DNA of 64,000 nucleotides from Globodera rostochiensis (Eukaryota > Nematoda > Chromadorea > Rhabditida > Heteroderidae). This document shows, piece after piece, positions 1,875 through 52,361 of this stretch. Under the pieces are notes generated by a model. The model did no database searches. It saw only the letters and a program-made list of their open reading frames with translations, and was not told the DNA's origin. Location of the stretch: positions 5,671,254 through 5,735,253 of the forward strand of contig JAEVLN010000001.1 in NCBI GenBank assembly GCA_018350325.1, written 5' to 3'. Within the stretch, counting starts at the first letter, position 1; each line of letters starts with the position of its first letter. The position numbers were made by a program, and so were the translations under genes.

Positions 1875-7863
<5,989 letters not shown>

Positions 7864-18894: not shown

Positions 18895-21800
18895 TCAGCG
18901 GTTATGGGCCGCCTCTTCCACGGGAAAGCCTCGCGCCTTCATCCAATCATCGTTGAGGAATTTGCTCCTGAAAATGTTTTTTCCGATTTGATTCCCCCCC
19001 GGCCCCGTCTAATCTAATCACGGACATTCCCCCTCCCCCCATTCATCCAATCACGGACATCCCCCTCTCCCCATCCATCCAATCACGGACATCCCCTCTC
19101 CCTATCCATCCAATCACGGACATCCCCTCTCCCTATCCATCCAATCACGGACATCCCCTCTCCCCATCCATCCAATCACGGACATCCCCTCTCCCCATCC
19201 ATCCAATCACGGACATCCCCCCCCCCGTCCATCCAATCACGAACGGACATATAATTGCGAATGCTGTCCGGCAAAAGGGTCACAATGCGTTTGTTTGGCC
19301 CCAATTGCTCGGCCACTTTCAGCGCGGCCCAAACGTTGGCACCCGAAGAACCGCCGCAGAGAAAGCCTTCGCAACGGATTAGCTGACGCGCGACACGGAA
19401 CGCGTCGGAATCGGATGTTTTAACCCATTCATCGACGAGCGAACGGTCGAGAACGGCCGGGACAAAGTCTAAAGAGTTGGGAAAATCAAGACGAACCACC
19501 CGAGCAAGAAGGAACATACCATGGCCAATGCCTTCAACTTCGTACTCGCCAACTTTTGAATTGGCCGGGTCCGCGAGAACGGAACCCTCCGGGTCGACGC
19601 CAACAATCTGCCAAAAGAGACAATAACTTTTTTTTGTCCATTTGGTTGGAATTGATCGATCGATCGATCACCTTGCAGCCGGGAACACTTTCGCGGATTC
19701 TTTTCGCAATTCCCGTCAACGAGCCGCCGGTGCCCGCGCCCGCCACCAAAACGTCCAATTTTCCGTCACACGAAAAAAGAATTTCCTCGGCAACGCTTTC
19801 ATAAAATGCCAACGGATTTGCTTCGTTTCGGCACTAAAAGCTTTTTGGTTCGGTAAAACAACAGAATGAAATTCTTTCTTTAAAATTACATAATGAACAA
19901 AACAATTTTCAGAATTTTAGTTTTTGCCAAAATTAGCGGTAAACGGCTTCAGCTCCCCTCCCCCCCCCCCCTCTCTTTGCTCTTCACCTGATCCAGGACG
20001 ACTGCCCCGGGGATCTCTTTCTGGAGGCGATATGCCACCCCAAAGTGCGACTCCGGGTCCTCGTGCCGTTTTCCATTCTGAGTCCGCACGACTTCGGCGC
20101 CCAATGAATGAAGGACGGCCTCTTTCTCGGGACTCATCTTCTCTGGCATGACGACGATGCACCGGTAGCCCCGGAGGGCAGCCATCATCGCCAGGCCAAT
20201 GCCGGTGTTTCCGCTGCTGGGCTCGATGATTGTGCTGCCGGCACTCAAAATGCCCTGCGACTCGGCCAATTCGACCATCCGACGCGCGGCCCGGTCCTCC
20301 ATGGACCCGCCGGGGTTGAAATACTCACACTTCAGTACTGAGGTGGACAATCCGTTTTAACCCTTAGAACTCTCTCACTAAATTCTCACAAATTTCCGTC
20401 CCTTCCACGCCGTACTCCTTGTGAAGTCGCTTCAACCGGACGAGCGGAGTGCCACCGATAACGCCGGCGATGTTGTCGAGGACAAGCGGCTTGACCGAAA
20501 GGCTAAATTCCTTCTGGTTTGAGATAAAGCCGGCCGGCCGGCCAAAACGTCAGCTAATACCTGAACGGCACACTTTGCCAAGGCCTGCGCACCTTTTGAA
20601 ATTCAAAATTGCCCGGCTTTTCCGGACTGAACGTCTCGGCCGGAAGGATTACGTCACTTTTGGGATAAATTCTGCTTTTCAGCTGCTGTGACTTTGCTGG
20701 CATAAATGCATTTGAAAGCTGAAAGGAAAAGCCGTGGCATTTGAATCGTTCAATTTGCTGACGGCGGTCACTGACCATCCAATCGTCGCTGACGAATTTG
20801 GTCAGATAATTTCGAATGCCGTCGGGCAACAAAAACACGCAATTCTGGCCTCGTTTAAGTTCTTTCGCGGCACGCATTGCCCCGGACAAAATCGCACATA
20901 AAATGGGAGAAACCGATCGATCACCGAATAAAACATTTTGTGATTCGCATTGACGGCGCTAGGTCAAAATGCCAAACAGGCCTAAAAACGTCAAAATGCC
21001 ATTGGCTGATTGGCTTTTTGACCGTTTTAGGCTTTGTTGGCATTCGACCTGGCACGGCACATTGACCTACCAGCGGAGCCTCCGTTTAGAATTCCCTCCA
21101 TGCGATGGATTTTGCGCGCCATTTGGAAAGTGTCCGAATCGCCAACCTTCTCCTGAATTTGAATAAAAAATCAACAAAAACTGTTCTTCTGAACGCAAAT
21201 TATTACCCAAGTGTCGATGTCGTCCATGTCCAACACCGTCGGCACAAAGTCGTAGCCGATGCCCTCCACTTTGTACTCGTGCCCGGCGTCCCCGTCCTCC
21301 CCGCCGAGGACGGACCCAATTGGGTCAACACCGACAATTTTGCAGTCTGGGTTTGCCTTTTTGATTCTGCGCGAGATGCCCGTGATGGACCCGCCAGTGC
21401 CTAAACCGAAAGCCCCGAAGCTCTCAACTCAAATTGGGGGAGTCCGTACCGACTCCGACCACGACCATGTCCACCTTGCCGTCCAACGCGTCCAATATTT
21501 CTTCGGCGGTTCCCTCGTAATGTGCCAATGGGTTGGCAATGTTTTTATACTGAATTGTGCCAAAACAATTGTTTTTGGTCCACCCGACTGGCCGACCTGG
21601 TCGAGCACAACCGAATTGGGCGTCTCCCGTCGGAGTCTGAACGCCATGCCGACGTGGGACTGCTCGCTGTCGAAGCGTGCGTCGTCTTTGGTCCGCACAA
21701 TTTGTGCCCCGAGGGCTTTCAGCGTCCGTTCTTTTTCTTCGCTCATTCTCTCCGGCATTACAATGACACAGCGATAGCCTTTGACGGCACAGGCCAACGC

Positions 21801-22660
21801 GAGGCCAATGCCCGTGTTGCCCGACGTCGGCTCAATGACCGTCATGCCGGGACGGAGTCGGCCGCTCTGTTCCGCCAATTCCACCATTCTCAGCGCAATC
21901 CGGTCCTTGACGGAGCCGCCGGCGTTCAGAAATTCGCATTTTCCATCTCAAAAGTGGCGAAATAAATCGGTGACAGAAATGAGGCAATTAATTAAATTAA
22001 ATTAATTATTCATTGTCAGATTCTCAAAAGTTTCACAATAATCACTGATTGTGATTTGTTGGGGGTACCAACCCGCGCCGTTTTTCGATCCGATCAAAAA
22101 AACGATAGAAAAAACTCACAAACATTACACTCGACGCCGTATTCAGTCGGAATTCGGTTGAGTTTTACCTTAAAAAGCGACAAAAATATGGCGGAATAAA
22201 ATAAATTCAAACAGACCAGCGGAGTGTGCCCAATTGCCTCAAGAATTGACTCCATAATCTTCGCTCTTTCTTTCCTACAAAACAAAATAATCAAATTCGC
22301 CTAAAGGCATTTAATTTTTTGATATAACAGAGATCCCATTTACGCTAAATAAATTAAAATTCAAAAATGCTATTCAGACTTTTATCCGGGCTTCGGGAAA
22401 TTGTTGAATTGAATTCGGGTTCGGGTTTCAAAAGTGGTCGAATGGAAGTCATTTTGGATGGATCTCCGGTCTCGAAAAGCGCAGACAACCCTTCGGGGGA
22501 CATGTTTAGCGGCATTACCAAAAACTTACGGATACTCCCTGAAGGGGTAGCGGCCGAACCGGTCCTCAACGCCGTCCGAGTGCCAATGGCTCTCTTCTCG
22601 CGCCTTCGGGTCATACGGTCGCGTGTCATTCTCGGGCGGCGGCAAATTTGGTGGTGGCAT
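18895..22660 (-). CDS. cbs-1: cystathionine beta-synthase-like enzyme with two tandem PLP modules
   Basis: One minus-strand gene carries two successive fold-type II PLP-enzyme modules. The start at 22660 gives a Pro-rich leader, then a junction of matching phase into [19 protein letters not shown]. Module A contains [14 protein letters not shown] (PLP lysine), [37 protein letters not shown] and GILNGGSAG, ending [20 protein letters not shown]. An in-phase intron (donor after NFEFQK) leads to module [88 protein letters not shown], stop at 18895-18897. CBS condenses serine (or cysteine) with homocysteine. Neither heme-binding leader nor Bateman domain is visible, as in nematode CBS-1. In module B the lysine position is Glu, so only module A looks catalytic. 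A minisatellite fills the last intron. Confidence 0.85.
19015..19248. repeat. 31-bp minisatellite filling the last cbs-1 intron
   Basis: About seven units of 31 bp (core CCATCCAATCACGGACAT then CCCCTCTCCCCAT) run from the authentic splice donor almost to the acceptor at 18968. On the minus strand each unit reads ATGTCCGTGATTGG, repeating the real exon-intron junction (AT|GTCCGT) at 19249/19248. Units differ by one or a few bases. Confidence 0.85.
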
Positions 22661-28723: not shown

Positions 28724-31628
28724 ATGAAGCCGCCGAGTCCGCTGTTTGCCTTGGCAGCCGTCCTTTTGGCATTTAATTGCGCTTTTTCTCCAATTTTAGC
28801 AAGTCACGACGAGCGACGTTTGTGAGTGAACGGGCAGAACAAATCAAACAAACCGTCCATTTACCCTAATAATAAAAAGGTATGAGGATTTGTTGCGCGA
28901 TTACAACAACAATTTGGAGCGTCCGGTTGAGAACCACACGAAGCCGGTGGTCGTTCATCTGAAAGTGTCCCTTCAACAATTAATCGACGTGGACGAGAAG
29001 AACCAGGTCATTCAGTTGTAGAAGGGGACTGAAATGGCGGAAATGGAATTGACGTCCAAATAAATAAAACCCAAAAAATGGCGCTGACTTTTTTTCAGAT
29101 TGTGCACATTAACGCGTGGCTCGACTACGTATTTTATGCCCTCTTTTTTGCCTTTTGCTTAATTACACCTAATGATCTCTTTTAGTTGTGGAATGACTAC
29201 AAATTGCGCTGGGATCCGACAGAGTACGGTAACATCAGGTCGGTTGTGCCATTGCCACTTTGGCATTATCAGTGTGTGTGCCTTCTTGTCCCTCCAGCAA
29301 TGTTCGATTTCCTGCCGGAAAAATTTGGAAGCCGGACGTCCTGCTGTACAATTCTGTTGATGCAAGCTTTGACTCAACCTTCCCGACCAACATGATCGTG
29401 TACAACGACGGAAACGTGTCCTGGATCCCGCCGGGCATTTTCAAAATCAGCTGTAAAATCGACATCACATGGTCCTGTTGCCGAGTTGAGTCAAACTCCT
29501 TAAGTTGAGAATGTTCAGGTTCCCATTTGACGAACAACGATGCTTCTTCAAGTTCGGTTCATGGACATATTCGGGTCAATTAGCGGCAATTATGGTTTAT
29601 TCATCTTGAACTTCCCCAATTTGTAGGCTCTTATGTTGACTTGCAGCCTGCAGAAGGGGGCTTCGACACCAGCGAGTATTTGCCCAACGGCGAATGGGCG
29701 TTGCCAAGTTGCGTTGCCCGCCGCCGGCATTAATTAACACCGTATTCGTTTCCTTTTCTCTTCTAGTGACTACGGTAGCCAGAACAGAGAAATTTTACGA
29801 TTGTTGTCCCAACGAGCCGTACCCCGACCTGACGTTCTATTTGCACATGCGAAGACGCACACTTTACTACGGCTTCAACCTGATAATGCCGTGCCTTCTC
29901 ACCACAACAATGTCTCTTCTCGGGTTCACGTTGCCGCCGGAGGCGGGAGAGAAAATCACTCTTCGTAAGTATTTTACCGAGACTCGAGACTGAGACTCTC
30001 GAACACCCCTAGGGGGAGACCACCCAAAGGAATAGGGAAAGTGCAAAAATGTATTTGCCGGGAGAAAGGACGTGACCTGATCCGGCTCTTCCCTGGGGAA
30101 ATCAGTTGGCGATAACCGGGAGATTGGGGCGAGGTGATCGAGCTGTTCAAAGCACTGAATGGGCATTTTGATCAGAAATGATTGGATTGGGGAGGTCGTG
30201 ATCAAGGTCAAGTTCAGAGATCACCGTGTTGCTGTCCATCTGCTTCTTCCTTTCCATCCTCTCGGAGATGTCCCCGCCGACCTCCGAGGCTGTGCCACTC
30301 CTCGGCCTCTTCTTCTCCAGTTGCATGCTCATCGTCACGGCATCTACCGTTTTCACGGTGTACGTGCTGAACTTGCACTATCGGACGCCGGAAACGCATG
30401 AAATGGGGCCAACGGTCGGTGGGACTGGGTTGGAACGTTCTTAAAAATGCTCAACGCGTAACTTCCCACCAAAGGCCCGGACTTTGTTGTTGTACTGGTT
30501 GCCCTGGTTGATCCGGATGGAGCGGCCCGGAGTCGTGCTCTGCTGGGTAGAAAATCTTCATTAGGGAACCGCTGAACCTCCGGATGCTTTCCCCAACTCC
30601 CTCAGGAAACGCTGCCTTCCCTGCTGCCTTGCTCAAAGCGAGTTTTCTTTGATAATTAATTACCTATTAATTATGTACACTTTATTAAATGTCCTTTTTG
30701 GCACGTCTAATTTTTGATTCTTTCAAAAACGATTAAAAATCGAAATCATTTTTAATTTGAGTAAATCTCACAGAGTTCTACACCCGAAGAAGCACAGCGA
30801 ATCGCTTATTCGCAACATCAAAGACTGCGAGAGCGGGGCCCGGTATGTCAAAATTTGTTTTCGCCTTTTCTTTCGGTCCAACATTAGAAAATATCAGTGG
30901 GCAATTAAAAAAACATGAAAACGTAAAGGTCCATGCTTAGATAAAAGAAATAAAAAACCAATTCGCGCCCCCGGGGGGATTCCGCCTCACGGTGATCCAC
31001 ATGACGCGTGCTTTTTTGGCCCGCAGGACGTCCATCGAAATCGATCAGCGAGTTCATCAGCTGTTATTTGGCAATGGCCGGACCCTCGAATTGCGGCGGG
31101 GCGCCTCCAAATCGGCGACCGGCGGCGGGGCGGACTCGGCGGCAGCTTTCGATTCAGCCGGTTCAGCACAGCAGGCGCTGCTGCTGACCCTGCAGAGGAT
31201 CCAACGGGAATTGAGGGTAGGCTTAGAACAAGCCGATAACGTTCAGCCTGCTAATCTGCTGGTGCTGTTGTTGAAACGGAGCGTCCCCCCGACCCGTCTT
31301 TTGTAAAAATCGAGAAACAGCGCCTCTCAAGCATAAACAGAATACTTCGTCCTTATTAATTTATGAGAGAGATCCGATAGAACAATTAGACAAAATGTCC
31401 AATGACAGTTGATCACCCGCCGAATGACCGAAGCGGACAGAGAGGGCGAACTCTCCAGCAACTGGAAATTTGCAGCAATGGTAAGGTGTGGGTGAACGAG
31501 GAGGGCTCAAATCGAAATTAAAATACGCACTTTCGGTGGTCGATCGGTTGTGCCTGTACTTGTTCTCCACGTTGATGATCGCAACTCTGGTCGGAGTTCT
31601 GGTCAGTGCCCCGTACATAATTGCCTGA
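28724..31628 (+). CDS. nicotinic acetylcholine receptor alpha-type subunit (ACR-16/alpha7 group)
   Basis: The first exon 28724-28821 encodes a signal peptide ([19 protein letters not shown]). Exons 28880-29006, 29099-29128, 29186-29238, 29298-29471 and 29519-29574 join in phase and carry the ligand-binding domain: [33 protein letters not shown] and the Cys loop [15 protein letters not shown] (13 residues between cysteines). The next exons contain [14 protein letters not shown], whose vicinal cysteines mark an alpha subunit, then M1 ([20 protein letters not shown]), M2 ([20 protein letters not shown]) and M3 ([18 protein letters not shown]). After a variable cytoplasmic loop, M4 ([20 protein letters not shown]) ends at TGA 31626-31628. 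Pentameric cation channel opened by acetylcholine at synapses or muscle. The long loop and its introns (30.5-31.4 kb) are the least certain part. Confidence 0.87.
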
Positions 31629-31756
31629 CTGATCAATTCTTTTTGTTTATTTTTATTATTGACTCGATGTTGACAAAAAAAAGTCAGGAATATGTGTAAA
31701 CTCTAAGAATTCTATAAAAAAATAGTCAAACGCCGAAAAATTTTCTTGGTGAGCAG

Positions 31757-31960
31757 GTCGATGATGTTCAGGGGCTGTTTGACGAACCTGGAAACAGCAG
31801 CAGTTGGGGGGAAGGTGCCGGAGTTCGGGCTGAACGAACGTCCATTTGTGGGGGACGACTGCAAGCGGGCAATGTACTCCAGGGAGAAGAAGAGCATACC
31901 GCTGAAGGAGGGGGAGGGGGAGTTCAAGCAGTCCACCGAATCGTCGCCAAACAAAAAAAA
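31757..31960 (-). pseudogene. voltage-gated K+ channel fragment A (S2 to early S3)
   Basis: The minus strand reads GDDSVDCLNS, then an S2-like MLFFSLEYIAR, and after a short intron VKQPLNIIDLLT, the conserved start of Kv S3. At 31756/31757 homology to the second copy stops abruptly inside the S3 codons, and the frame runs into unrelated sequence. Compared with copy B a few bases are changed around the residues after EYIAR. There is no T1, S1, S4 or pore. Clearly a broken copy. Confidence 0.75.
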
Positions 31961-32585
31961 AAGACCAAATTTCGGACAATTGAAGGGACCAAATGGGCGT
32001 CATCAGAGAGCAAGGACTTGAGGACCGATCGAGAATCTCAAAAAAATCTCGAAAATTCTCGGCGAGAATCTCGATCATCCTCGCTTTAGTCATCAGTCCG
32101 TCGTCGACTTGGAATGAATGAATGGCCGGCAAAAGAATTGAACAAAAAACTGAAGACGCCGGCGGCGATGGGCGAAAGTCTTTGCCCAAAATCCAAAGTT
32201 TTCTTCCATAATTTCAATTCAACTTTCATAATATTGCCAAAACAGCCAATTTGGCTGTTTACAAATGTTGCTGCTTCCCATCCATCGTCCGGCTGTAAAT
32301 AAGAATTGGTGCTTCTTTTCAAAGACAAAAAGTTGGCGGAAACTTGAATGTCCGGGACAGAAATATGGATAAATGGGCACGACAACTTTTCATTTACTTA
32401 TGTGAGAGTCCACCGGCTTTTGACGATGCTGGGGCAGGCAATTAGCACTTTGATCCATCCAAAACGCGAAATATGTTTATACGTTTTCAAAAACGCCGAA
32501 GGGCAACAACATCTATTCTCCGACCAACATCAACAAACGAACAAAGAGTTGCCATTTTGATGATCAAACATTGGATCCTATTTTC

Positions 32586-32591
32586 TGTATA
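32586..32591 (+). promoter_or_regulatory. TATA box upstream of the unit-1 Cys-rich gene
   Basis: TATAAA followed by TACTGATGGATGC is conserved at the same place in both duplication units (also 35421-35426), about 200 bp before the first Cys-domain exon here. Conservation and position suggest a core promoter; transcription start would be about 25-30 bp downstream. Confidence 0.5.
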
Positions 32592-32789
32592 AATACTGAT
32601 GGATGCCGCCAATCAGTCCATCAACATCATCATTCATTATTAACACTAATTTGTTCCGAAATCCTTCTTGCTATGTTAGGTACCTTTTTTACCAATTTTG
32701 GTCGGGGTTTTCGCCTCCGGACTCCGACTTTTCGAAATTTCGGGGTTTTAGTTTAAAACATAACCCGTTTTAAAGCATAAGCATTTCAG

Positions 32790-33698
32790 CACATATTCAA
32801 CTATTGCACCAGCGCTATGGCGGATAGAACCTGCCCATGTGGAAAGGGAAACACCGATGATTTCAAAGGGATTAATTGTGCCCATTATCTCACTAATTGG
32901 ATGATCGGAAACGGGGCTCTCGAACCGTACCCGGCAGGCTGTTACTGTTGCGAGGAAGGGCGTCCGATTCGGGCTAAAGACGTAAAAAGTCACATTTTCG
33001 AGGTGTTAAAGTTTAAGCGTCTGTTATTAATCATTAAATTCCGGTCTTGATTTGATAATATTTTAATTAAGAAAACGAATAATTCACCAATTTCTTTTTA
33101 TAGGAACAGTATGGACTTGGCAAGACTAGCCCACCGAAAGACGGCTCAAACTGCTTTGTTTATTGTTATAAGGCGTCCAATGATCGAGGACATGTGGTCT
33201 AATTAATATATTAATCATATGCCAATTAGAGAGAGCAGACGGGATCGGGAGTCTGTCGGGATTGAGTTCGGAATTCCGAACCCGAAAAAGGGTTTAAAGC
33301 CGGACCTATTACCTATATACTGTAAATTATTTGAGTATTTTGTTTTGTTTTATATTTAGTACTAGGGTTGGACAAAACCGGATATTATCCGGGTCCCCCG
33401 GATACCGGATAGCTCAAAAACACCCGGAAACCGGTCCCGGATACCGGGTAATTTGGCTTGGGTTGGTCCAAGACCCGGATAATTTTAGCCAAAAATTTGC
33501 GAAAACACACGGATACGGGTCCCGGATTATCCGGTTTTGTCCAACCCTATTTAGTACTATGGAAGAGAGGACTATTGTGCGGCGGGAACGGGCACGGCTC
33601 CGAGTTATGAAACGCGTCGCTACTACTACCACGACGACGCGGCTTCTCATTTTGATTTTAACGATCCTCCGGTTCAGGAAGTTTGTTCAATAATTTAA
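32790..33698 (+). CDS. Cys-rich family member, compact form (possible effector; NCAHYL...GHV domain)
   Basis: Three exons fit in phase 0: 32790-33002, 33104-33196 and 33555-33698. Domain blocks are CPCGKGNTDDFKGINCAHYL-TNWMI, then GRPIRAKDV, then GKTSPPKDGSNCFVYC ending RGHV, and a last exon YYGREDYCAAGTGTAPSY with RRYYYHDD, stop at 33696-33698. The first coding exon, which could hold a signal peptide, is not resolved. I know no named family with certainty. The order Cys (NCAHYL), then His (GHV), then YYG resembles papain-like/NlpC-P60-type folds, which is a weak inference. It is paralogous to the unit-2 gene, which carries giant repeats. The acceptor of exon 3 is duplicated by a mobile-element insertion. 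Confidence 0.6.
33364..33548. mobile_element. 185-bp non-autonomous inverted-repeat element (MITE) with 10-bp target duplication
   Basis: The ends are AGGGTTGGACAAAACCGG and its inverse CCGGTTTTGTCCAACCCT; the inverted ends extend over about 21 bp and the interior is also rich in CCGGATA-type inverted words. ATTTAGTACT flanks both sides (33354-33363 and 33549-33558), a 10-bp target-site duplication. No coding capacity. A 9-11 bp duplication suggests a Mutator-type transposase source (inference). Confidence 0.85.
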
Positions 33699-34094: not shown

Positions 34095-34800
34095 ACAAAC
34101 AGAGGCAATGGCGGCGACCACCTTGGAGAGAAGGAAAAAGGGCTTCTTCTTGTATGTACTGCTTGCTGACCTTTCCGCCCGTTGTCACTGGCACCAGATC
34201 GCCATATCTTTTTTGGAAAGGAACATTTGGCCAAAAATGGCACTTTTGAAAGCTTAAAGTGAACTGACCCGACGGTGGTCATCTAAAGAAAGGGTGTACT
34301 GTATTTGTTACTTTTTGTTGCGACGAATCGTAACTTACAGTAGCGACGCACCACCACCAGGCGGAGGGAATGGAGTAGAACTTGGAGTTGGGTTCGTCAC
34401 GCTCAAAGAAGTAAATAGCGGTCGAAAACAGCATAATGCCCTGGGGGGGGGGGGAATGGAAATAGGCCATGTCCCCCCGGGCGTTTCATTGCGCAATTCC
34501 ACGTCATAGACCCCGAGAAGGGGCAGGCAAGCTTCGAGAAGGAACGGGACGATGGTGAGCAGGTCAATGATGTTCAGGGGCTGTTTGACGAACCTGGAAA
34601 CGGCAAGCACTTGGGGGGAAGGTGCCGGAGTTCGGGCTGAACGAACGTCCATTTGTGGGGGACGACGGCAAAGCGGGCAATGTACTCCAGGGAGAAGAAG
34701 AGCATACCGCTGAAGGGGGGGGAGGGGGAGTTCAAGCAGTCCACCGAATCGTCGCCAAACAAAAAAAGACCAAATTTCGGACAATTGAAGGGACCAAATG
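34095..34800 (-). pseudogene. voltage-gated K+ channel remnant B (S2-S3 and pore, S4 missing)
   Basis: Minus-strand exons encode S2 (MLFFSLEYIARFAVVPHKW), S3 (VKQPLNIIDLLTIVPFLLEA), then directly the S5 end and pore: GIMLFSTAIYFFERDEPNSK, IPSAWWWCVAT. A micro-exon gives MTTVG, and the next exon YGDLVPVTTGGK completes the TVGYGD selectivity filter. Then follow VVAAIASVCG and loss of a convincing frame. The S4-S5 exon that should lie between S3 and the pore is absent: only a roughly 45-bp intron with a G run (about 34441-34451) separates them. T1, S1 and most of S6 were not found. Hence a pseudogene or remnant of a Kv-type channel. Confidence 0.72.
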
Positions 34801-35420
34801 GGTGTCATCAGAGAGCAAGGACTTGAGGACCGATCGAGAATCTCAAAAAAATCTCGAAAATTCTCGGCGAGAATCTCGATCATCCTCGCTTTAGTCATCA
34901 GTCCGTCGTCGACTTGGAATGAATGAATGGCCGGCAAAAGAATTGAACAAAAAACTGAAGACGCCGGCGGCGATGGGCGAAAGTCTTTGCCCAAAATCCA
35001 AAGTTTTCTTCCATAATTTCAATTCAACTTTCATAATATTGCCAAAACAGCCAATTTGGCTGTTTACAAATGTTGCTGCTTCCCATCCATCGTCCGGCTG
35101 TAAATAAGAATTGGTGCTTCTTTTCAAAGACAAAAAGTTGGCGGAAACTTGAATGTCCGGGACAGAAATATGGAGAAGAAAAAGAGCCACCCCCCTTTCC
35201 CCCCCCAGTTCATTTACCTAATAAATAAGTGAGAAATCCCCCCCCCCCACCGGCCTTTGGCTGGGCATCCAAAGGCAATTAGCACTTTGATCCATCCAAA
35301 ACGCGAAAATATGTTTATATGCAAAACGCCGAGGGGCAAACACCACCCATCCTCCGGCCAACATCAACAATCGAACAAAGAATTGTCATTAATGATCAAA
35401 CATTGGATCCTTATTTTGGG

Positions 35421-35426
35421 TATAAA
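35421..35426 (+). promoter_or_regulatory. TATA box upstream of the unit-2 Cys-rich gene
   Basis: TATAAATACTGATGGATGC is identical in core to the copy at 32586. Downstream exon 1 is unresolved; a hydrophobic frame (PKILLALFLTNFAKS) lies just after it and might be part of a signal peptide. Confidence 0.45.
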
Positions 35427-36067
35427 TACTGATGGATGCTAACAGTTCCATCACCATCGTCCATTCATTATTTAACATTAAATTTCCCAAAATCCTTCTT
35501 GCTCTTTTTCTTACAAATTTTGCAAAATCAAATTTACACATACCCTTTTATGGGTAAAATATCAACTCGTTCTCCACCAACTCATTCACTATCAACTCGT
35601 TCCCCACCTATGGCTTGTTCTCTTTTTACTGACTCGTTCCCTTACCCGAATTTTTTTCGAGTCGAGAAATTGTTCGAATTCGGGTCCGGGGCTCGGAACC
35701 GGAGCAAAATAGAAATATCCTTCCAAACCGGTTCCAAAATCCAAAAATATATGCCTCATTCTCTCCTGTCGTGGACCGTTACACTTTTTCGATTTATATA
35801 ATTTTTTATAAATTGTCTGAAGAAAGTTGTTGATGAAGTGATTACGATTTTGAATAGAAAACGGATTTTTGGAGCGCTTGCAAACTTAAACGGTGACCGA
35901 TTCAAAAACCGTTTCCGAAATTGAAGACATATTTATTTTTCTTGGCCCAATTACCTCTTGCAAATGTGTTTTAAATACAATTGGGAAGGGCGTCGTATAC
36001 GGGAAAATATCTTCTTTTCTTGAGAAGCAAATAAATCGACCAAACCGTCTACGGTAGAACTGTTTTT

Positions 36068-39000
36068 ATGGCTGAATTGTCTTTGGACGAATTGTCTCCG
36101 AGCGAAATGTCTACGGATGACCCGATCGGAACGGATGACCCGATCGGAACGGATGACCCGATCGGAACGGATGACCCGATCGGAACGGATGACCCGATCG
36201 GAACGGATGACCCGATCGGAACGGATGACCCGATCGGAACGGATGACCCGATCGGAACGGATGACCCGATCGGAACGGATGACCCGATCGGAACGGATGA
36301 CCCGATCGGAACGGATGACCCGATCGGAACGGATGACCCGATCGGAACGGATGACCCGATCGGAACGGATGACCCGATCGGAACGGATGACCCGATCGGA
36401 ACGGATGACCCGATCGGAACGGATGACCCGATCGGAACGGATGACCCGATCAGAACGGATGACCCGATCGGAACGGATGACCCGATCGGAACGGATGACC
36501 CGATCGGAACGGATGACCCGATCGGAACGGATGACCCGATCGGAACGGATGACCCGATCGGAACGGATGACCCGATCGGAACGGATGACCCGATCGGAAC
36601 GGATGACCCGATCGGAACGGATGACCCGATCGGAACGGATGACCCGATCGGAACGGATGACCCGATCGGAACGGATGACCCGATCGGAACGGATGACCCG
36701 GTCGAAACGGCTGATCCGGAAGAAACGGCTGATCCGGTCGAAACGGATGCCCCGGTCGAAACGGATGCCCCGGTCGAAACGGATGCCCCGGTCGAAACGG
36801 ATGCCCCGGTCGAAACGGATGCCCCGGTCGAAACGGATGCCCCGGTCGAAACGGATGCCCCGGTCGAAACGGATGCCCCGGGAGAAACGGATGCCCCGGG
36901 AGAAACGGATGCCCCGGGAGAAACGGATGCCCCGGGAGAAACGGATGCCCCGGGAGAAACGGATGCCCCGGGAGAAACGGATGCCCCGGGAGAAACGGAT
37001 GCCCCGGGAGAAACGGATGCCCCGGGAGAAACGGATGCCCCGCCCCGAGAAACGGATGGAGAAACGGATGCCCCGGGAGAAACGGATGCCCCGGGAGAAA
37101 CGGATGCCCCGGGAGAAACGGATGCCCCGGGAGAAACGGATGCCCCGGGAGAAACGGATGCCCCGGGAGAAACGGATGCCCCGGGAGAAACGGATGCCCC
37201 GGGAGAAACGGATGCCCCGGGAGAAACGGATGCCCCGGGAGAAACGGATGCCCCGGGAGAAACGGATGCCCCGGGAGAAACGGATGCCCCGGGAGAAACG
37301 GATGCCCCGGGAGAAACGGATGCCCCGGGAGAAACGGATGCCCCGGGCGAAACGGATGCCCCGGGCGAAACGGATGCCCCGGGCGAAACGGATGCCCCGG
37401 GCGAAACGGATGCCCCGGGCGAAACGGATGCCCCGGGCGAAACGGATGCCCCGGGCGAAACGGATGCCCCGGGCGAAACGGATGCCCCGGGCGAAACGGA
37501 TGCCCCGGGCGAAACGGATGCCCCGGGAGAAACGGATGCCCCGGGCGAAACGGATGCCCCGGGCGAAACGGATGCCCCGGGCGAAACGGATGCCCCGGGA
37601 GAAACGGATGCCCCGGGAGAAACGGATGCCCCGGGAGAAACGGATGCCCCGGGAGAAACGGATGCCCCGGGAGAAACGGATGCCCCGGGAGAAACGGATG
37701 CCCCGGGAGAAACGGATGCCCCGGGAGAAACGGATGCCCCGGGAGAAACGGATGCCCCGGGCGAAACGGATGCCCCGGGCGAAACGGATGCCCCGGGCGA
37801 AACGGATGCCCCGGGAGAAACGGATGCCCCGGGAGAAACGGATGCCCCGGGAGAAACGGATGCCCCGGGAGAAACGGATGCCCCGGGAGAAACGGATGCC
37901 CCGGGAGAAACGGATGCCCCGGGAGAAACGGATGCCCCGGGAGAAACGGATGCCCCGGGAGAAACGGATGCCCCGGGAGAAACGGATGCCCCGGGAGAAA
38001 CGGATGCCCCGGGAGAAACGGATGCCCCGGGAGAAACGGATGCCCCGGGAGAAACGGATGCCCCGGGAGAAACGGATGCCCCAGGAGAAACGGATGCCCC
38101 GGGCGAAACGGATGCCCCGGGCGAAACGGATGCCCCGGGAGAAACGGATGCCCCGGGCGAAACGGATGCCCCGGGCGAAACGGATGCCCCGGGCGAAACG
38201 GATGCCCCGGGCGAAACGGATGCCCCGGGAGAAACGGATGCCCCGGGAGAAACGGATGCCACGGGAGAAAAGGATGCCCCGGGCGAAACAGCTGATCTGG
38301 GCGGATTGCTCACTAATTGGATGATGGGAAAAGGGGATCTCAACCCGAACCCGGATCGTCGAGGACATGTGGTAAACATCCTAATTAATATATTAATATA
38401 TGCCAATTAGAGAAGGATCGGGATCGGGATCCCATCGGGATTTAGCCGGGATTGAATTCGCGTCCGACCGAGTCTTTTTTTTTGTTCGGCATTTTGCCAG
38501 GCTCCCGAATCCGTAAAAGGTTTGGCCGGTCTCTATTACCTATATACCGTAAATTATTTGAGTAATTATGTTTTCAAAATGATTTAATATTTATTATTTT
38601 ATTGTTTTTGTTAATTTCCTCCGAACACTTTTGTTTAGTACTATGGAACAGCGGCCAAAGGTGCGGCGGGAACGAACGCGGGGCCGAGTTATGGAAACCG
38701 TCGCTACTTCTACGCCCCGGGCGAATTGTCTACGGATGCCCCGGGCGAAACGGCTGCCCTTGGCAAAACGGCTGCCCCGATCAAACCGGCTGCCCCGATC
38801 AAACCGGCTGCCCCGATCAAACCGGCTGCCCCGGTCAAACCGGCTGCCCCGATCAAACCGGCTGCCCCGATCAAACCGGCTGCCCCGATCAAACCGGCTG
38901 CCCCGATCAAACCGGCTGCCCCGATCAAACCGGCTGCCCCGATCAAACCGGCTGCCCCGGTCAAACCGGCTGCCCCGATCAAACCGGCTGCCCCGATCAA

Positions 39001-39807
39001 ACCGGCTGCCCCGATCAAACCGGCTGCCCCGATCAAACCGGCTGCCCCGATCAAACCGGCTGCCCCGATCAAACCGGCTGCCCCGATCAAACCGGCTGCC
39101 CCGATCAAACCGGCTGCCCCGGTCAAAACAGCTAAAGATGCCGAAGATGAAAGCAGCAGCAGCAGCAGCAGCGGCATCGGCAACTTTTTGCGTGGACTTT
39201 TTGGTGGACTATTTTCTGGAAGCCTACCGAAAAGCGATATGGTGCTTAAATACGAGCACACCTGTGGATGTGGAAAGGGAAAGACCAAGGATTTCGAAGA
39301 TAAAAATTGTGCCCATTATCTCACTAATTGGATGATCAAAATCGGTTTTATCGTTCTGCCACCGAAAGACGAACCGAAGGCGGAAGAGCGTGTGCCAAAA
39401 TTGCAAAAGCCTCCTACTTGTCCTCATGGGCGTCTGATTCGGGCTAAAGACGTACAAAAGCTATTCGAGGTGTTAAAGTTTAATTGATAATAATTTTAAT
39501 TAAGAAAACGAATAATCAAAAACAATTTTTTTTTTATAGACCAAATTTGGACCAGGCAAGACTAGCCCACCGAAGGACGGCTCACCCTGCTTCGTCTATT
39601 GTGAGAACGAGAAAAAGCAAGGACATGTGGTAAAAAAAAACATTTTAATTAAATTATTTTGTCATATGCCAATTAGAGATGATTTAATATTTATTGTTAT
39701 TAATAACCAACGAAAACTTTGTTTAGTATTTTGGGACAGCGGAAAAATGTGTGGCGGGAACGAACGCGGGGCCGAGCTATCAAAAAGTACGTCTCTACTA
39801 CTATTAG
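36068..39807 (+). CDS. giant repeat-bearing Cys-rich family protein (candidate hypervariable effector)
   Basis: Four exons fit in phase 0: 36068-38371, 38639-39469, 39540-39629 and 39727-39807 (1,102 codons with stop). Order: MAELSLDELSPSEMS; 32 units of TDDPIG; three transitional units; 7 of TDAPVE; about 75 of TDAPGE; a relict domain (LLTNWMMGKGDLNPNP then RGHV) that has lost its cysteines; the exon YYGTAAKGAAGTNAGPSY; GELSTDAPGE; about 20 units of KPAAPI; a Ser run; then a complete domain: HTCGCGKGKTKDF, NCAHYLTNWMI, GRLIRAKDV, GKTSPPKDGSPCFVYC, QGHV and YFGTAEKCVAGTNAGPSY. Acidic and proline-rich repeats flanked by conserved blocks recall cyst-nematode hypervariable (HYP) effectors; identity, secretion and the first exon are unproven. 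Start could be further upstream: an acceptor-like TAG lies just before the ATG. Confidence 0.6.
36113..38289 (+). repeat. 18-bp tandem array (about 117 units) encoding TDDPIG / TDAPVE / TDAPGE
   Basis: Units such as ACGGATGACCCGATCGGA and ACGGATGCCCCGGGAGAA follow each other in perfect 18-bp register, so the frame is kept throughout. Three blocks occur: TDDPIG (36113-36688), TDAPVE (36743-36868) and TDAPGE (36869 on), the last made of GGA- and GGC-type variants in clusters. Only a few singletons break the pattern (for example one IR unit near 36451 and an irregular APPRETDGE near 37035-37064). All other frames on both strands stay open simply because the unit lacks stops. Confidence 0.95.
38767..39125 (+). 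repeat. 18-bp tandem array (about 20 units) encoding KPAAPI
   Basis: The unit GCTGCCCCGATCAAACCG is repeated about 20 times with three GTC (Val) variants. It is in frame with the Cys-rich gene and separated from the first array by the relict domain and an intron. Confidence 0.93.
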
Positions 39808-43700: not shown

Positions 43701-44741
43701 AGGGGATTACTGTATTTGGTTTGTGGCCTAATTAAGGAAGGGTTACTGTATTTGGTTGGTGGCCTAATTAAGAAAGGGGTTTGGTTGGTGGGCCAAGTTT
43801 AAATTATAGGGGAAACATTTCAAACGGACTTTTGAATTCAAAAGTTTTGATTATTTGCCTAAACATTTGGCCTTTGTGCAAAACTTTCTTTGTCCCCAAT
43901 CGATTTTTTGCGTTCGATTTTTGTGACCATTCAAAGAAAACGAACAATTAGTGAATGGCCGGCGAAAGATTTGGACCAAAAAACGAAAGATTTGAATTGA
44001 ATGGACGGCGCCGGCGGCGGTGGGCGAAAGTCTCTGCCAAAGTCCAAAAAGTCTTTATAAATGAATGGCCCTTTCTGTCCAAATGACCCAATTTATGTTC
44101 AACAAAAGTGGTTTCTTTCTGCTGATTGACTAAACTGACCACGTCACTGGTGCCAAAAAAGTTCCAGGCAAATGCCATTCCGATTGGGTCCAATGAAAGG
44201 CATCCGCCGTACGTTGGCGTCACCCCGGGCGTTGGGAAGAAGGCGGAGGGCGTGGGCTGCTCGGCCGCGTAAACATTTGGGTACAGGGCGGGCGCGGTGG
44301 GCACCAGCGGCGACGGGTGGTGGACGACGGCGGGCCGCCGGAAGGCGGCCGCCATCAAAGGGGCCATCACCAACGGATGGGCGCCGTCCACGGGAGGCGG
44401 CGACGGCTGAACCAACCGGAAAGCCTGAGATCAGAAAAAATGCTTAAGGCTTTTGAATCGATTGAACTGTTTGAATTGCTTGCCTGTTCATGAAGCCGTC
44501 CGTCCCCCTCATTATGGTGGCCGATGCCGCCGTAGTTGGCTGTGATGGCGGCAAGTCCGGCCGAGATGAGCGAGCCGGGCCGTGCCTTCGGCGTGCCCAG
44601 CAGATGGAGCTGATGGGCGTCGTATGGGAAATTGTTCGCCGGGGGGTCCATGGGCGGGGCCAATTCGAACAGTTCGGCGGTGGGAGGAGGGGGCGGGGGA
44701 GCATCCATTGGGCCTTGGCGCGAGGATGATGAGTTGGACAA
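40790..44741 (-). CDS. fos-1: FOS-family bZIP transcription factor
   Basis: Seven exons fit in phase: 44741-44484, 44424-44140, 42732-42409, 42220-42098, 41939-41528, 41359-41087 and 40914-40790 (599 residues). A long Pro/Ala-rich N-terminus precedes GGRRPREAE and the basic region DRRAKRRERNKQAAARCRRR, whose RRERNKQAAARCR core is the Fos/Kayak signature. The leucine zipper starts in the same exon and continues across the next junction (MQSLQE-QVDELRKQNERRES, then EHRLLEML). The C-terminal half is Gln/His- and Ser-rich, ending PANGELNELR. Fos proteins pair with Jun to bind AP-1 sites; C. elegans FOS-1 controls anchor-cell invasion. The first intron (44483-44425) has a GC donor (CAG|GCAAGC). 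The large intron 44139-42733 holds a hairpin and a tandem repeat. Confidence 0.82.
43364..43494. repeat. large imperfect palindrome (about 56-bp arms)
   Basis: The left arm (TTAACTAAACCAGTCGTGCT ... CTAAGTCTTTAG) and right arm (CTAAAGACTTAGAG ... GTACGACTCGTTTAGTTAAG) are inverse copies with roughly 90% identity around a loop of about 17 bases. It lies in the long fos-1 intron. Likely a foldback/MITE-type element; target duplications not evident. Confidence 0.8.
43508..43790. repeat. degenerate tandem repeat in the fos-1 intron
   Basis: Words of the type GAGTAAGGGTTACTGTATTT and GGTTGGTGGCCTAATTAAG recur about every 30-35 bp, with a longer-period alternation including GTGTGTTGATTGGTAGGGG. 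Diverged minisatellite adjoining the palindrome. Confidence 0.75.
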
Positions 44742-49429: not shown

Positions 49430-52361
49430 TTAATTAGCCCTTTTAATAAATTCACTTATTTCTGCATTAACAGATAATTCGGAAGCAATTAACACGTCCA
49501 TTATGAAACAATCAATCACAAAAAGTCGTCGTCGCCCTCTCCGCTGATCAGCACCACCGCCGCCGCCGTTTGTTGCCAAAGGCACTCTCTCGCACTTCTG
49601 GTGCTGCTTCTGTTCCGTGTCGCCAACGTTTTGCCCCCGACTCTGTTTCCCCGCTCTACCGATTGCGGGGAATTGCCCAAAGACTTGTTTTCCCCGCAGG
49701 GGCCTTTCCGCTGCCCCCCATTTTTTTGAATTTGTCCGTTCTTTCGGCGAAGTCTCGGCGACAATTCGGCCATTGCCTACGGATGCTTTTCCGCTTTTGA
49801 ATGATTGCTGTTGGGCTGCTCCAAAATGATTTGAGTTGGAAGCCGTCGCATTTGTTGCAGCGGAAGTGCCGTGGGCGCATGCCAACGGAGTGGACTCCAA
49901 ATGCCTTTTTAAACACGATTTTTATAAATTGAAAATTTTAGGAGCTAAAATAAAAACATTTTCAGTGACTCAAAAAGTCTCGAGTCTCGGGTCTCGACTC
50001 GAGAAAAGTCTCGGGTTTTTTGGGTCTCGGTTTCGGTATCGAGTCTCGGGGTCAAGTCTCGGTCTCGAGTCTCGGGGTCAAGTCTCGGTCTCGAGTCTCG
50101 GTAAATTTTGGGTCTCGTGCATCACTAATTTGTAAGTAACCAACCAACCAACCCGTTCAGGCGAACGTGAACAAATGACGCGCACAACGGGACGCGGCGC
50201 AGAAGGCAACGGATGGGCGACAGGGAGAGGAAGGCACGGCGGTACTCGGACGAGGCCATGCAGAAGATGAAGAAGTTCAGACAGTGGTTCAGCACCTCCG
50301 CCGTGTTGGCGAGTTGCCGAAAGACCTTTTTTGGGGGGTTTTGTTTGGTTAACAGAGACTGGCAGGCAAAGAAAGCTGGAAGAAAGTGCCTGGAAGTTGT
50401 AGGAGTGTTCCTGCAACAAAAAAGGGATTATTATTTAATTCGAAAATGCCCCAAGTCTTACCAATGACTCATTTTGGACTACCATAACCACCTAAATAAA
50501 TAATTTGGAGTGTAAATTAATTGGCAACGGATTTTTAAGAATTGCGCGGACCATTTGCGGAATGTTTCCGATGGCGAAGATCACGCAAATGGCGATCATT
50601 AGCGCGGTCAACTTCTTCTCGGTGAAGGAGCGCATCAGCGAGTTCAGTTCACGTCTGAAGAAGTTTTGTGTGCCTTTTGTGAGTGAACGAACGGTTTGGC
50701 GCTCACTTTCCGCCTTTGAGGTCGCCGCCGGGGAATGGAAGGCCGAGGAGTTGGGGCTGTTGCATTTCCGGTGGCATACTCACACGCTTTATCAGCAGCC
50801 GCCGATTGCGCTTAACCAAAGCCGAACGAATTGAGCAGGTCGAAAGGTTGGGTTGGAATTGAAAGGCACAGTTTCCCTTCATTCCTTACCCAAGTAAATG
50901 TCCTCAGAATTTTAGATGAATTCAATGCAATCAAATCAAATTCCTGATTCGATTCCACAAAAAGCCATTTGTGATGTGCTTTTTGTTGATTCGGTCAATA
51001 AATAATTTCTACGCACTTTTGCCACTTGGAGTGATCGTGCCACTTTTGCATTCAGAACGATGAGGAGGAGGACGCAGAAGAAGCGAAGGCATTCCCTGCC
51101 CATTTTGTAGTAGTTGAACAGCGTCCATGCCGGCTGATGGCACAACAAATCCACCTTAAGGGGGGTAATTGTTTGATCAGATCAGCCCCATGGGGTTTTC
51201 AGTTCCCCGAATTGCACCCCCCGTGGGGGTTTCAGCTCCTCGAATTGCCCCACGGGGGGTTTTCAGTTCCTCGAATTGCACCCCCCCCCCCGGGGTTTTC
51301 AACTCCTCGAATTGCCCCGCGGGGGTTTTCAATTCCCAATTTCCCGTCAATTCCCTCCCCCTCACATTGTTTCCCTTCGTCCAACGCCCCGCACATTTGC
51401 CCGCTTCCATGCGCGTGCATTTCGCCTTATTTTGTAGGGCCATCGGCGAATGGAGCAAAACGGCGACAAGCAAAGCAAAGCCAATTTTGACCAAAACGGT
51501 ATTTTCAATAGAAAGGAGCCGTACACCGGTGGCGAAAGGGTTTCGAATCAGCAAATATCTGCAATTTTAAATTGATTATAAAAAATTATTTTCATTAAAA
51601 ACAAAAAAATAAATAAAAAGAATATTCCGTTGCGGGGAATCGAACCCCGGCCTTGTGAGTGAGAGTCACAAATCCTAACCACTAGACCACAACGGACATG
51701 TTGTAGACTTATCCAAAATTTCTTTTATTATTTCTTTTTCATTGCAAATATTTTTTTCCAATCATTGATTGAATCTTCCCTTTCCATTCATTACCTTTCG
51801 ATGGTGAGCAATACGGCACAATAAAGTCCGGCGACCAGAAAAGAATTGATCAAAACGTCCTGAGGGCAAATTCCTTCCGATTAATTAACATTTTGAGCGT
51901 TTACCTGCACCCAAACTTCGTAAAACACAACCGGATCCAAATTGATGTGCACAGAGTCCAGCACAAAATGCAAGAGAATGGCAGCCAAACTGACCTAATT
52001 AATTATTTTGGAGGTGCCGAATAAAAACGTCGGATTGATTCTGACCAAGTCAAAAAGTGCCAATGCCCGGATGAACATAAACGGCACGTTTCGGAGGGAC
52101 GGACTTCGCAGTGTGACCAAATTGAGCACATTGCCGGCAACTCCAAGCAGTGAAATGGCCACCTTTGGAGAAAGCATCAAAAATTGAAGCCCCCCCCCCC
52201 CAGTTTTGATTGTTAACTCTGACCATAATGCATCGGAAAGTCCATTTGAGGTTGGTCAGTGCCGGGTTGGGCAGGGATGTGCCGTTGTCGGGACGGCAGA
52301 ATCTGTCCAGCACCGGCGACGGAGGCGGGAAGTCGGAGGAGTTATGGAAAAGCTCGTCCAT
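49430..52361 (-). CDS. peptide-type 7TM receptor (FMRFamide-receptor-like)
   Basis: The start at 52361 gives an N-glycosylatable N-terminus (MDELFHNSSDFPPPSP, DNGTSLPN). TM1 is VAISLLGVAGNVLNLVTL, TM2 FMFIRALALFDLV with AAILLHFVLD in the next exon, TM3 DVLINSFLVAGLYCAVLLT followed by IER-YLLIRNP (DRY position), TM4 VKIGFALLVAVLLHSPMALQ, TM5 CLRFFCVLLLIVLNAKVARS, TM6 KKLTALMIAICVIFAIGNIP and TM7 NTAEVLNHCLNFFIFCMAS with SEYRRAF. The Ser/Gln-rich tail ends in IKRAN before the stop at 49430. About eight exons, GT-AG. GNxLNL in TM1 and the ER(Y) motif fit nematode FRPR/DMSR-type peptide receptors; the ligand is unknown. A tRNA-Glu is nested in the intron after TM3, and the intron before the last exon contains a TCTCGGG-type repeat. 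Confidence 0.75.
49972..50116. repeat. GTCTCGAGTCTCGGG tandem repeat
   Basis: About ten imperfect copies of GAGTCTCGGG / AAGTCTCGGTCTC, including a doubled GGGGTCAAGTCTCGGTCTCG. It lies in an intron of the 7TM gene, between the TM7 exon and the tail exon. Confidence 0.8.
51625..51696 (-). tRNA. tRNA-Glu (anticodon CTC)
   Basis: The 72-nt minus-strand sequence folds as a full cloverleaf: acceptor TCCGTTG/CAACGGA with discriminator A, D arm with AGTGGTTAGGA, anticodon arm TGTGA-CTCTCAC-TCACA (anticodon CTC), and T arm CGGGG-TTCGATT-CCCCG. The A box TGGTCTAGTGG and B box GGTTCGATTCC are intact. No tRNA intron. It lies inside an intron of the 7TM receptor gene in the same orientation. Confidence 0.96.

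What the first reader, a model, noticed from the sequence alone, without database searches (positions are those of the whole stretch)
36068..39807. Domain-repeat gene with about 137 perfectly phased 18-bp repeats, candidate hypervariable effector
Seen: four in-phase exons give about 1,100 residues in which two 18-bp arrays (TDDPIG/TDAPVE/TDAPGE and KPAAPI) surround a relict domain copy and precede an intact Cys-rich domain. Near absence of synonymous change shows very recent expansion. Known: cyst-nematode HYP effectors have variable numbers and types of repeats between conserved parts. Inference: this locus is such a fast-evolving, probably secreted protein, or a new family with the same mode of evolution.
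Basis: partly seen in the sequence, partly recalled or inferred. Interest (0 to 1): 0.88.

Follow-up and report, generated by a model that had tools for sequence, protein, structure and literature searches.

The report
Repeat-swollen orphan gene of potato nematode
[quoted passage not shown] nothing yet shows that it is expressed, variable between worms or secreted into plants.

Summary
The arrays are real. Array 1 (36113-38289) has 121 units and array 2 (38765-39124) has 20; 139 of 141 units are exactly 18 bp, and the two exceptions (+3, -6 bp) keep the frame. They lie in a four-exon model (36068-39807, GT-AG introns, phase 0, 1,101 aa), with a decayed domain copy between the arrays and an intact CxC...CxH domain after them. 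A repeat-free tandem paralogue at 32817 matches a UniRef G. rostochiensis protein labelled 'SWIM-type'. The domain search found this gene pair only, and the exact TDAPGE pattern this locus only. Database searches found no record of the long gene.

The HYP-effector reading is weak: no signal peptide at the first in-frame ATG, no DOG box, none of the G. pallida HYP motifs tested, arrays in two exons, long homogeneous runs (97 of 120 neighbouring units identical). 'Near absence of synonymous change' is wrong: the commonest variant, GGA/GGC, is synonymous. Regular phase is weak evidence of coding, because an apparently non-coding 27-bp array in this genome is as regular. dN/dS between the paralogues (0.83) does not differ from neutral. 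Best reading: a lineage-restricted orphan gene whose coding minisatellites likely grew by slippage or unequal exchange.

The parts
36068..38371 (+). Exon A of the predicted gene L: short leader, array 1, decayed (relict) domain; 768 codons
   Evidence: open frame, donor GTAAACAT, homology of its 3' end to paralogue S
36113..38289 (+). Array 1: 121 hexapeptide units (TDDPIG block, TDAPVE block, TDAPGE block with alternating GGA/GGC runs), net charge about -241
37031..37063 (+). The only two units of array 1 that are not 18 bp (21 and 12 bp), frame kept
38288..38371 (+). Relict domain copy R: keeps LLTNWM and RGHV blocks, lacks CxC and CxH
38639..39469 (+). Exon B: YYG block, array 2, Ser run, FG-rich linker, start of the intact domain with CGC...CAH; 277 codons
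38765..39124 (+). Array 2: 20 units (KTAAPI, then 19 KPAAPI/KPAAPV), basic
39540..39629 (+). Exon C: GKTSPPKDGS...CFVYC...GHV
39727..39807 (+). Exon D: YFGTAEKCVAGTNAGPSY..., stop
32817..33698 (+). Paralogue S, without arrays (exons 32817-33002 and 33104-33196, third conserved block 33555-33698); UniRef P0001 agrees with the first two exons and ends just after the second
34553..35503 (+). Upstream region of L, 88.9% identical to that of S (31747-32672), with a 371-bp stretch of 100% identity
35432..35553 (+). Possible but doubtful upstream exon with a hydrophobic, signal-peptide-like N-terminus
   Evidence: TATA-like box starts at 35421

Best explanation
This is a predicted, likely lineage-restricted orphan gene of Globodera rostochiensis in which two in-frame 18-bp minisatellites (121 and 20 units) lie around a decayed copy and before an intact copy of a small CxC...CxH domain, and it likely makes a protein of about 1,100 residues whose long, likely disordered acidic and basic tails would change length by replication slippage or unequal exchange while the C-terminal domain would do the binding. 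Shown by sequence: the arrays, the open four-exon model, the tandem repeat-free paralogue S, the loss of the Cys/His pattern in the relict copy and its retention in S and in the intact copy, the long homogeneous runs, and the mosaic identity of the two upstream regions. Inferred: that the gene is transcribed and spliced as drawn, that the domain binds zinc and a partner, that array length varies between worms, and that gene conversion made the identical upstream tract. Most likely working: the domain of L binds the same kind of partner as that of S, and array 1 (net charge about -241; up to 407 residues without K, R or H) acts as a spacer or polyelectrolyte tail that tolerates many unit numbers because each whole unit adds six residues in frame.
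For: Four phase-0 exons with GT-AG introns and open frames summing to 1,101 codons. The exon ends and introns are shared with paralogue S (introns 75-81% identical over aligned bases). The domain search found 2 places in the genome, S and L. S agrees with UniRef protein P0001 of G. rostochiensis. CxC...CxH is present in S and in the intact copy and absent in the relict; the only other match in six frames of the window is an antisense low-complexity one. Identical runs of 11 and 10 residues in a 53-of-91-identical alignment are reached together in 30 of 20,000 shuffles (the 11-residue run alone in 1,108), so parts of the domain look constrained. 97 of 120 neighbouring units in array 1 are identical, and 6 of 9 odd units sit at borders or at the end of blocks, as expected of local duplication. 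A 371-bp identical upstream tract is followed by 226 of 294 identical bases. Other long, regular minisatellites exist in the same genome, so the growth process is not special to this gene.
Against: No transcript data could be used. No match to L turned up in the protein database, so the gene finders behind those records did not report it in the length ranges searched. dN/dS between S and the intact copy is 0.362/0.435 = 0.83, not different from neutral (bootstrap pN>pS 256 of 1,000), so relaxed or absent constraint is possible. The clumped identity could also come from gene conversion. Regular phase does not prove coding (L042). The domain's fold could not be predicted (mean pLDDT 33.5) and Pfam has no match. 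3 of 9 odd units lie inside blocks.
Confidence: 0.55

Rival explanations
1. A decaying, unexpressed duplicate: a non-functional relative of S in which a minisatellite of a kind found elsewhere in this genome happened to grow in a phase that stays open.
For: dN/dS not different from 1; one domain copy has already lost its Cys/His pattern; L absent from the protein database in the length ranges searched; an apparently non-coding array of equal regularity exists (L042: 0 of 65 spacings off frame).
Against: All four exons open, all three introns keep GT-AG, the intact copy keeps CxC...CxH, and the upstream region is 88.9% identical to that of S.
Confidence: 0.27
2. A secreted, hyper-variable effector that works like the HYP proteins (variable central repeats displayed to the plant), with a signal peptide on an upstream exon.
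For: Cyst nematode; repeat gene at a single locus, as HYP1 and HYP3 are single loci (PMC11228951); a phase-compatible upstream ORF with a hydrophobic stretch exists at 35432-35553.
Against: None of five G. pallida HYP motif strings; homogeneous blocks instead of mixed order; arrays in two exons; no signal peptide in the annotated S or at the first in-frame ATG of L; no DOG box in the four upstream stretches tested, although amphid genes such as HYP need not have one.
Confidence: 0.15
3. An assembly or polishing artefact: wrong unit number or a collapsed or duplicated tandem locus.
For: Arrays of 2.2 kb are prone to miscounting (general knowledge); the assembly method of this genome is not known here.
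Against: The two genes differ through most of the coding part and the unit variants form ordered blocks.
Confidence: 0.03

Closest known systems
HYP hyper-variable effectors of potato cyst nematodes (PMC4177990, PMC11228951)
   Same: Cyst nematode, single locus, no Pfam domain, tandem peptide repeats of 5-6 residues (HYP1) in an open frame joined to conserved coding parts.
   Different: Other motifs; two arrays in two exons with a relict domain between; 141 units against 1-27 motifs in G. pallida HYP1 and typically 11 or 13 in G. rostochiensis HYP1; long homogeneous runs instead of mixed (G. pallida) or pseudo-alternating (G. rostochiensis) order; no clear signal peptide; Cys-containing domain with a repeat-free tandem paralogue.
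SWIM-type zinc finger proteins (UniRef label of the paralogue S)
   Same: CxC-x(n)-CxH pattern in S and in the intact copy of L; UniRef calls S 'SWIM-type domain-containing protein'.
   Different: No Pfam match up to E = 10; no fold could be predicted.
Repeat-containing effectors in general (reviews PMC4617103 and PMC11799481, passages read)
   Same: Tandem repeats in proteins of plant parasites, thought to evolve through changes in repeat number, order or sequence.
   Different: Secretion and activity in the plant are not shown here.
Other minisatellites of the same genome (L040-L045)
   Same: Periods of 15, 18 or 27 bp, up to about 68 copies.
   Different: Different unit sequences; L041 has stops and 8 of 33 spacings out of frame, and open frames through L042 end within 179 bp of it, whereas the L arrays are joined to exons shared with a paralogue.

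Membership tests
HYP effectors | N-terminal signal peptide | tested here: inconclusive
   None at the first in-frame ATG (36068); one doubtful phase-compatible upstream ORF at 35432-35553 (the phase was worked out by hand from its positions). No signal-peptide predictor was available; judged by hydropathy.
HYP effectors | Repeat domain in the middle of one middle exon between conserved 5' and 3' coding parts | tested here: not met
   Array 1 lies in the first predicted coding exon and array 2 in the second.
HYP effectors | HYP motifs of G. pallida (RGGG, DRGD, RDNKRG, REGGD, EKPPP strings) | tested here: not met
   0 of 5 strings in 4 exons. The HYP3 11-residue motif and the G. rostochiensis HYP1 motifs were not available as strings and were not tested.
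HYP effectors | Mixed motif order with very few homopolymers (G. pallida HYP1) | tested here: not met
   97 of 120 adjacent units identical in array 1, 13 of 19 in array 2.
HYP effectors | Single-gene locus (HYP1, HYP3) | tested here: met
   All 74 exact TDAPGE pattern matches lie in this array; the domain was found at 2 places, this gene and its tandem paralogue.
HYP effectors | About 95% identical conserved regions shared by all HYPs | not tested
HYP effectors | Allele diversity in a population; amphid expression; apoplastic location | not testable with these tools
   Needs reads, in situ hybridisation, immunolabelling.
SWIM zinc finger | CxC-x(n)-CxH ligands | tested here: met
   Present in S and in the intact copy of L, absent in the relict; of 3 matches in six frames of the window the third is antisense and low-complexity.
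SWIM zinc finger | Match to a curated family profile | tested here: not met
   No Pfam family up to E = 10 for P0001, for the intact copy or for single exons. The PROSITE profile behind the usual SWIM label (recalled) could not be run.
SWIM zinc finger | Zinc binding | not testable with these tools
   Needs protein.
Dorsal-gland (DOG box) effectors | ATGCCA copies within 500 bp upstream (mean about 2.54 in DOG-box dorsal gland effectors, PMC4901422) | tested here: not met
   0 copies on either strand in the four upstream stretches tested, two for S and two for L.
Coding minisatellite gene | Array unit a multiple of 3, open, joined in frame to conserved coding sequence | tested here: met
Coding minisatellite gene | Transcript across the array | not testable with these tools
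   No RNA data.

The most novel reading that the evidence does not exclude
A second programmed hyper-variable locus in potato cyst nematodes: its arrays, the relict domain between them and the converted upstream region are the trace of the same locus-specific, frame-keeping editing that has been proposed for HYP genes, here acting on tails of about 845 residues attached to a zinc-binding domain.
Probability: 0.06. Interest if true: 0.85.

Novelty: new member of a known kind. Interest (0 to 1): 0.42.

Why it matters
HYP genes raised the open question of whether cyst nematodes edit repeat domains by a locus-specific mechanism (PMC11228951). This locus offers an in-genome comparison: a large, frame-keeping repeat gene whose pattern looks like ordinary slippage or unequal exchange, beside a repeat-free paralogue that shows the gene without arrays. 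If existing long reads show many lengths here too, frame-keeping diversity does not need a HYP-specific mechanism; if they show one length, HYP stands out more. It also adds a gene that appears to be missing from the protein records searched.

Tried and rejected
Rejected: the HYP identity (motifs tested, exon layout, order of units). Rejected as proof of coding: perfect phase (control arrays). Rejected: positive selection on the domain; my first impression that introns were more conserved than exons did not hold as a test (introns 74-81% over aligned bases; dN/dS 0.83, not different from 1). One of the comparisons pointed the other way, S against the relict in exon 3 (dS 0.087, dN 0.318, 26 codons), but Fisher gives p = 0.10-0.22 depending on rounding. 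Considered by eye and dropped: an NlpC/P60-like reading of the domain, for which no call gave support. Led nowhere: Pfam, PDB sequences, AlphaFold2 with a three-row alignment (mean pLDDT 33.5, so no fold search was made), DNA hairpins in the arrays (one of four stretches folds somewhat better than shuffles, z = -2.05), paper searches (listings read, no title on this gene seen). Protein database searches for L found nothing; they cover only proteins of 155-493 and 435-1,384 aa that share words with the stretches used, so absence is not proven. The genome searches are lower bounds: the search with the last exon of S missed the related relict exon at 38639 in this very window.
Full report
Where the window comes from. 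The genome has 92.6 Mb in 80 contigs. The exon of a gene at 32817 matches a UniRef protein of Globodera rostochiensis, P0001, at 100% identity over 70% of the query (sequence). I take the genome to be that species. A published line, Gr-Line19, has a 92-Mb assembly in 173 scaffolds (PMC8359618, passages read); the assembly used here is not named to me.

The observation. Tandem Repeats Finder gives 121.1 copies of 18 bp at 36113-38289 and 20.2 copies at 38764-39127. Read in the frame of the ATG at 36068, array 1 holds 121 units: 31 TDDPIG, one TDDPIR, one each of TDDPVE, TADPEE and TADPVE, 7 TDAPVE, 75 TDAPGE, one 21-bp and one 12-bp unit, one TDATGE and one KDAPGE (the last two are two 18-mers that the script printed as 9 + 27 bases; 121 units counted). 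Array 2 holds KTAAPI and 19 KPAAPI or KPAAPV. 139 of 141 units are 18 bp; the other two change the length by +3 and -6. The TDAPGE units are 52 with GGA, 22 with GGC and one with CCA, so the main variation inside the largest block is synonymous, contrary to the finding. Units come in runs: 97 of 120 neighbours are identical in DNA and 108 of 120 in protein. Of 9 odd units (the 8 single ones and the CCA unit), 6 lie at a border between runs or at the 3' end and 3 lie inside blocks.

The gene model. Exons 36068-38371, 38639-39469, 39540-39629 and 39727-39807 are all phase 0; donors GTAAACAT, GTGTTAAA and GTAAAAAA; acceptors TTTTGTTTAG, TTTTTTATAG and CTTTGTTTAG. They sum to 1,101 codons. Exon A is 768 aa with 251 D+E and 6 K+R, and array 1 has a net charge of -241; exon B has 42 K+R and 18 D+E. 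Long open frames cross most of array 1 in all six frames, so the frame is fixed only by the flanks.

The paralogue. A repeat-free gene S lies about 3 kb upstream. Its first two exons align with the intact domain of L: 53 of 91 aligned residues identical, with identical runs NCAHYLTNWMI and GKTSPPKDGS. In 20,000 shuffles of the columns, two runs this long occurred together 30 times, and the longer one alone 1,108 times, so the conserved blocks are unlikely to be random; gene conversion could also make them. The relict copy between the arrays keeps LLTNWM and RGHV and its following intron and YYG exon, but lacks CxC and CxH. The genome search with the domain exon finds two places, S and L. The search with the last exon of S finds itself and, weakly (E = 0.08), exon D of L; it missed the related exon at 38639, so these counts are lower bounds.

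Selection. Over 117 codons of three exons, S against the intact copy gives dN 0.362 and dS 0.435; the bootstrap gives pN>pS in 256 of 1,000, Fisher p = 0.56. By exon, dN/dS values are 0.388/0.324, 0.300/0.451 and 0.376/0.728. S against the relict in exon 3 gives dN 0.318 and dS 0.087 over 26 codons, not significant (p = 0.10-0.22). Over aligned bases, intron 1 is 54/67 identical (S/I) and intron 2 62/83 (S/I), 153/202 (S/R) and 72/97 (R/I). There is no firm evidence for positive selection and none for strong constraint overall.

The upstream regions. Those of S and L align over 965 columns at 88.9%. A 371-bp stretch (S 31999-32369, L 34804-35174) is identical; the 250 aligned bases before it have 243 matches and the 294 after it 226. 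The sharp drop suggests recent gene conversion (inference). Its first 90 or so bases belong to a dispersed repeat: of 92 candidates 40 were scored, two of them this pair. Both regions carry TATAAAT (32588, 35421). No ATGCCA occurs on either strand in the four stretches tested upstream of the two genes; DOG-box dorsal-gland effectors average about 2.54 copies (PMC4901422, passages).

Secretion. S as annotated starts MADRTCPCGKG. L at its first in-frame ATG starts MAELSLDELSPSEMS. An ORF from 35432 has a hydrophobic stretch (best 10-residue hydropathy 2.29). The GTAAAA donor at 35554 leaves two bases (my count), and acceptors with first bases 36058 and 36103 need one, so the phase fits. Both acceptors look poor by eye and the ATG is 11 bases after the start of the TATA-like box, so I rate this exon doubtful. 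No signal-peptide program and no splice-site scorer was used.

Controls from the same genome. A search with part of array 1 as protein also hits other arrays, the best at 48-52% identity; 150 of 186 candidates were scored. For array 2 the best hit elsewhere has 55% identity; 150 of 343 were scored. Six stretches chosen from these matches were fetched. Four carry a unit of 15 or 18 bp or a higher-order form of it (L040, L041, L043, L044), one another 18-bp unit (L045), and L042 a 27-bp unit in about 68 copies at 98%. Spacings not a multiple of three: L array 1 0 of 116, array 2 0 of 18, L040 0 of 32, L041 8 of 33, L042 0 of 65, L043 0 of 8, L044 0 of 9 and 1 of 4, L045 0 of 16. Four of six frames are open through L042, but none extends more than 179 bp beyond it, so it looks non-coding (introns not excluded) and is as regular as L. 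Phase is therefore weak evidence for coding.

Database searches. P0001 was the only candidate for S among about 5.8 billion proteins. The intact-domain query had 117 candidates (155-493 aa), none at E <= 1; the relict-end query had 19 (435-1,384 aa), none at E <= 10. Pfam gives no match, nor do PDB sequences. AlphaFold2 on P0001 with two exon rows gave mean pLDDT 33.5, too low to use. The label SWIM is UniRef's; I checked only the CxC...CxH pattern, which has 3 matches in six frames of the window: S, L, and an antisense one over the serine run.

Comparison with HYP. From PMC4177990 (outline with abstract, Results part 1) and PMC11228951 (parts 1 and 2 of 7, passages, Discussion part 1; [quoted passage not shown] pallida) or a pseudo-alternating pattern (G. 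rostochiensis), single loci for HYP1 and HYP3, and an estimated thousand or more alleles. L shares the single locus and open repeats, and differs in the motifs tested, layout and order. The G. rostochiensis HYP1 motifs are in a figure that I could not see.

How it most likely works. The arrays likely grew in place by replication slippage or unequal exchange: most units match their neighbours. Both arrays begin near a shared stretch, GAATTGTCTACGGATG at 38723 and GAAATGTCTACGGATG at 36104, so the domain with its array was likely duplicated inside the gene, after which the first domain decayed. The protein would be a long charged tail on a small Cys/His domain. Function beyond that is inference, and the decayed-duplicate rival remains serious.

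Not found in print in these searches: 'Globodera rostochiensis' with 'SWIM' (7 papers, listing only), the four repeat peptides (10 papers, listing only, nine on pertussis or its vaccine and one on memory), 'Globodera' with 'minisatellite' (5 papers, listing only).

Noticed in passing
31999-32369 and 34804-35174: 371 bp of complete identity between the upstream regions of S and L with an abrupt fall to 77% right after; looks like a recent gene conversion tract.
   Followed up: partly
33363-33549: Short element with terminal inverted repeats (about 35 bp, 91% alike) in the last intron of S, flanked by a duplicated TATTTAGTACTA that includes the acceptor site.
   Followed up: no
32000-32096 and 34805-34901: Part of a dispersed repeat; 40 of 92 candidates scored genome-wide, this pair included. 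A separate diverged match to 32113-32197 lies at 43946-44048.
   Followed up: no
L042 (G000:C45:4491500-4495000), 762-2597: About 68 copies of a 27-bp unit at 98% match; open frames end within 179 bp of it: a large regular, apparently non-coding minisatellite.
   Followed up: partly
L040, L041, L043, L044: A dispersed 15/18-bp minisatellite family (unit near CAATCCGTCAGTGAAGGA) at four of the six fetched loci.
   Followed up: partly
34338-34604 (-): By eye resembles voltage-gated potassium channel pieces between the two paralogues; Pfam found no match, so unconfirmed.
   Followed up: partly
30181-31600 (+): By eye resembles a nicotinic acetylcholine receptor subunit upstream of S; the one stretch scanned (30941-31303) had no Pfam match, so unconfirmed.
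   Followed up: partly
19952-20356 and 21432-21947 (-): Two neighbouring pyridoxal-phosphate enzyme (PALP) exons, likely tandem genes.
   Followed up: no
19012-19241 and 56815-57037: Further minisatellites in the window: 31 bp x 7.4 and 35 bp x 6.4.
   Followed up: no
39150-39230: Serine run and FG-rich segment (GIGNFLRGLFGGLFSG) between array 2 and the intact domain; possibly a hinge or membrane-active segment, untested.
   Followed up: no
5969-6274 (+), 61510-61821 and 62606-62908 (-), 51625-51696 (-): Ordinary neighbours: tyrosine-kinase exon, RIOX-like JmjC gene exons, tRNA-Glu.
   Followed up: no
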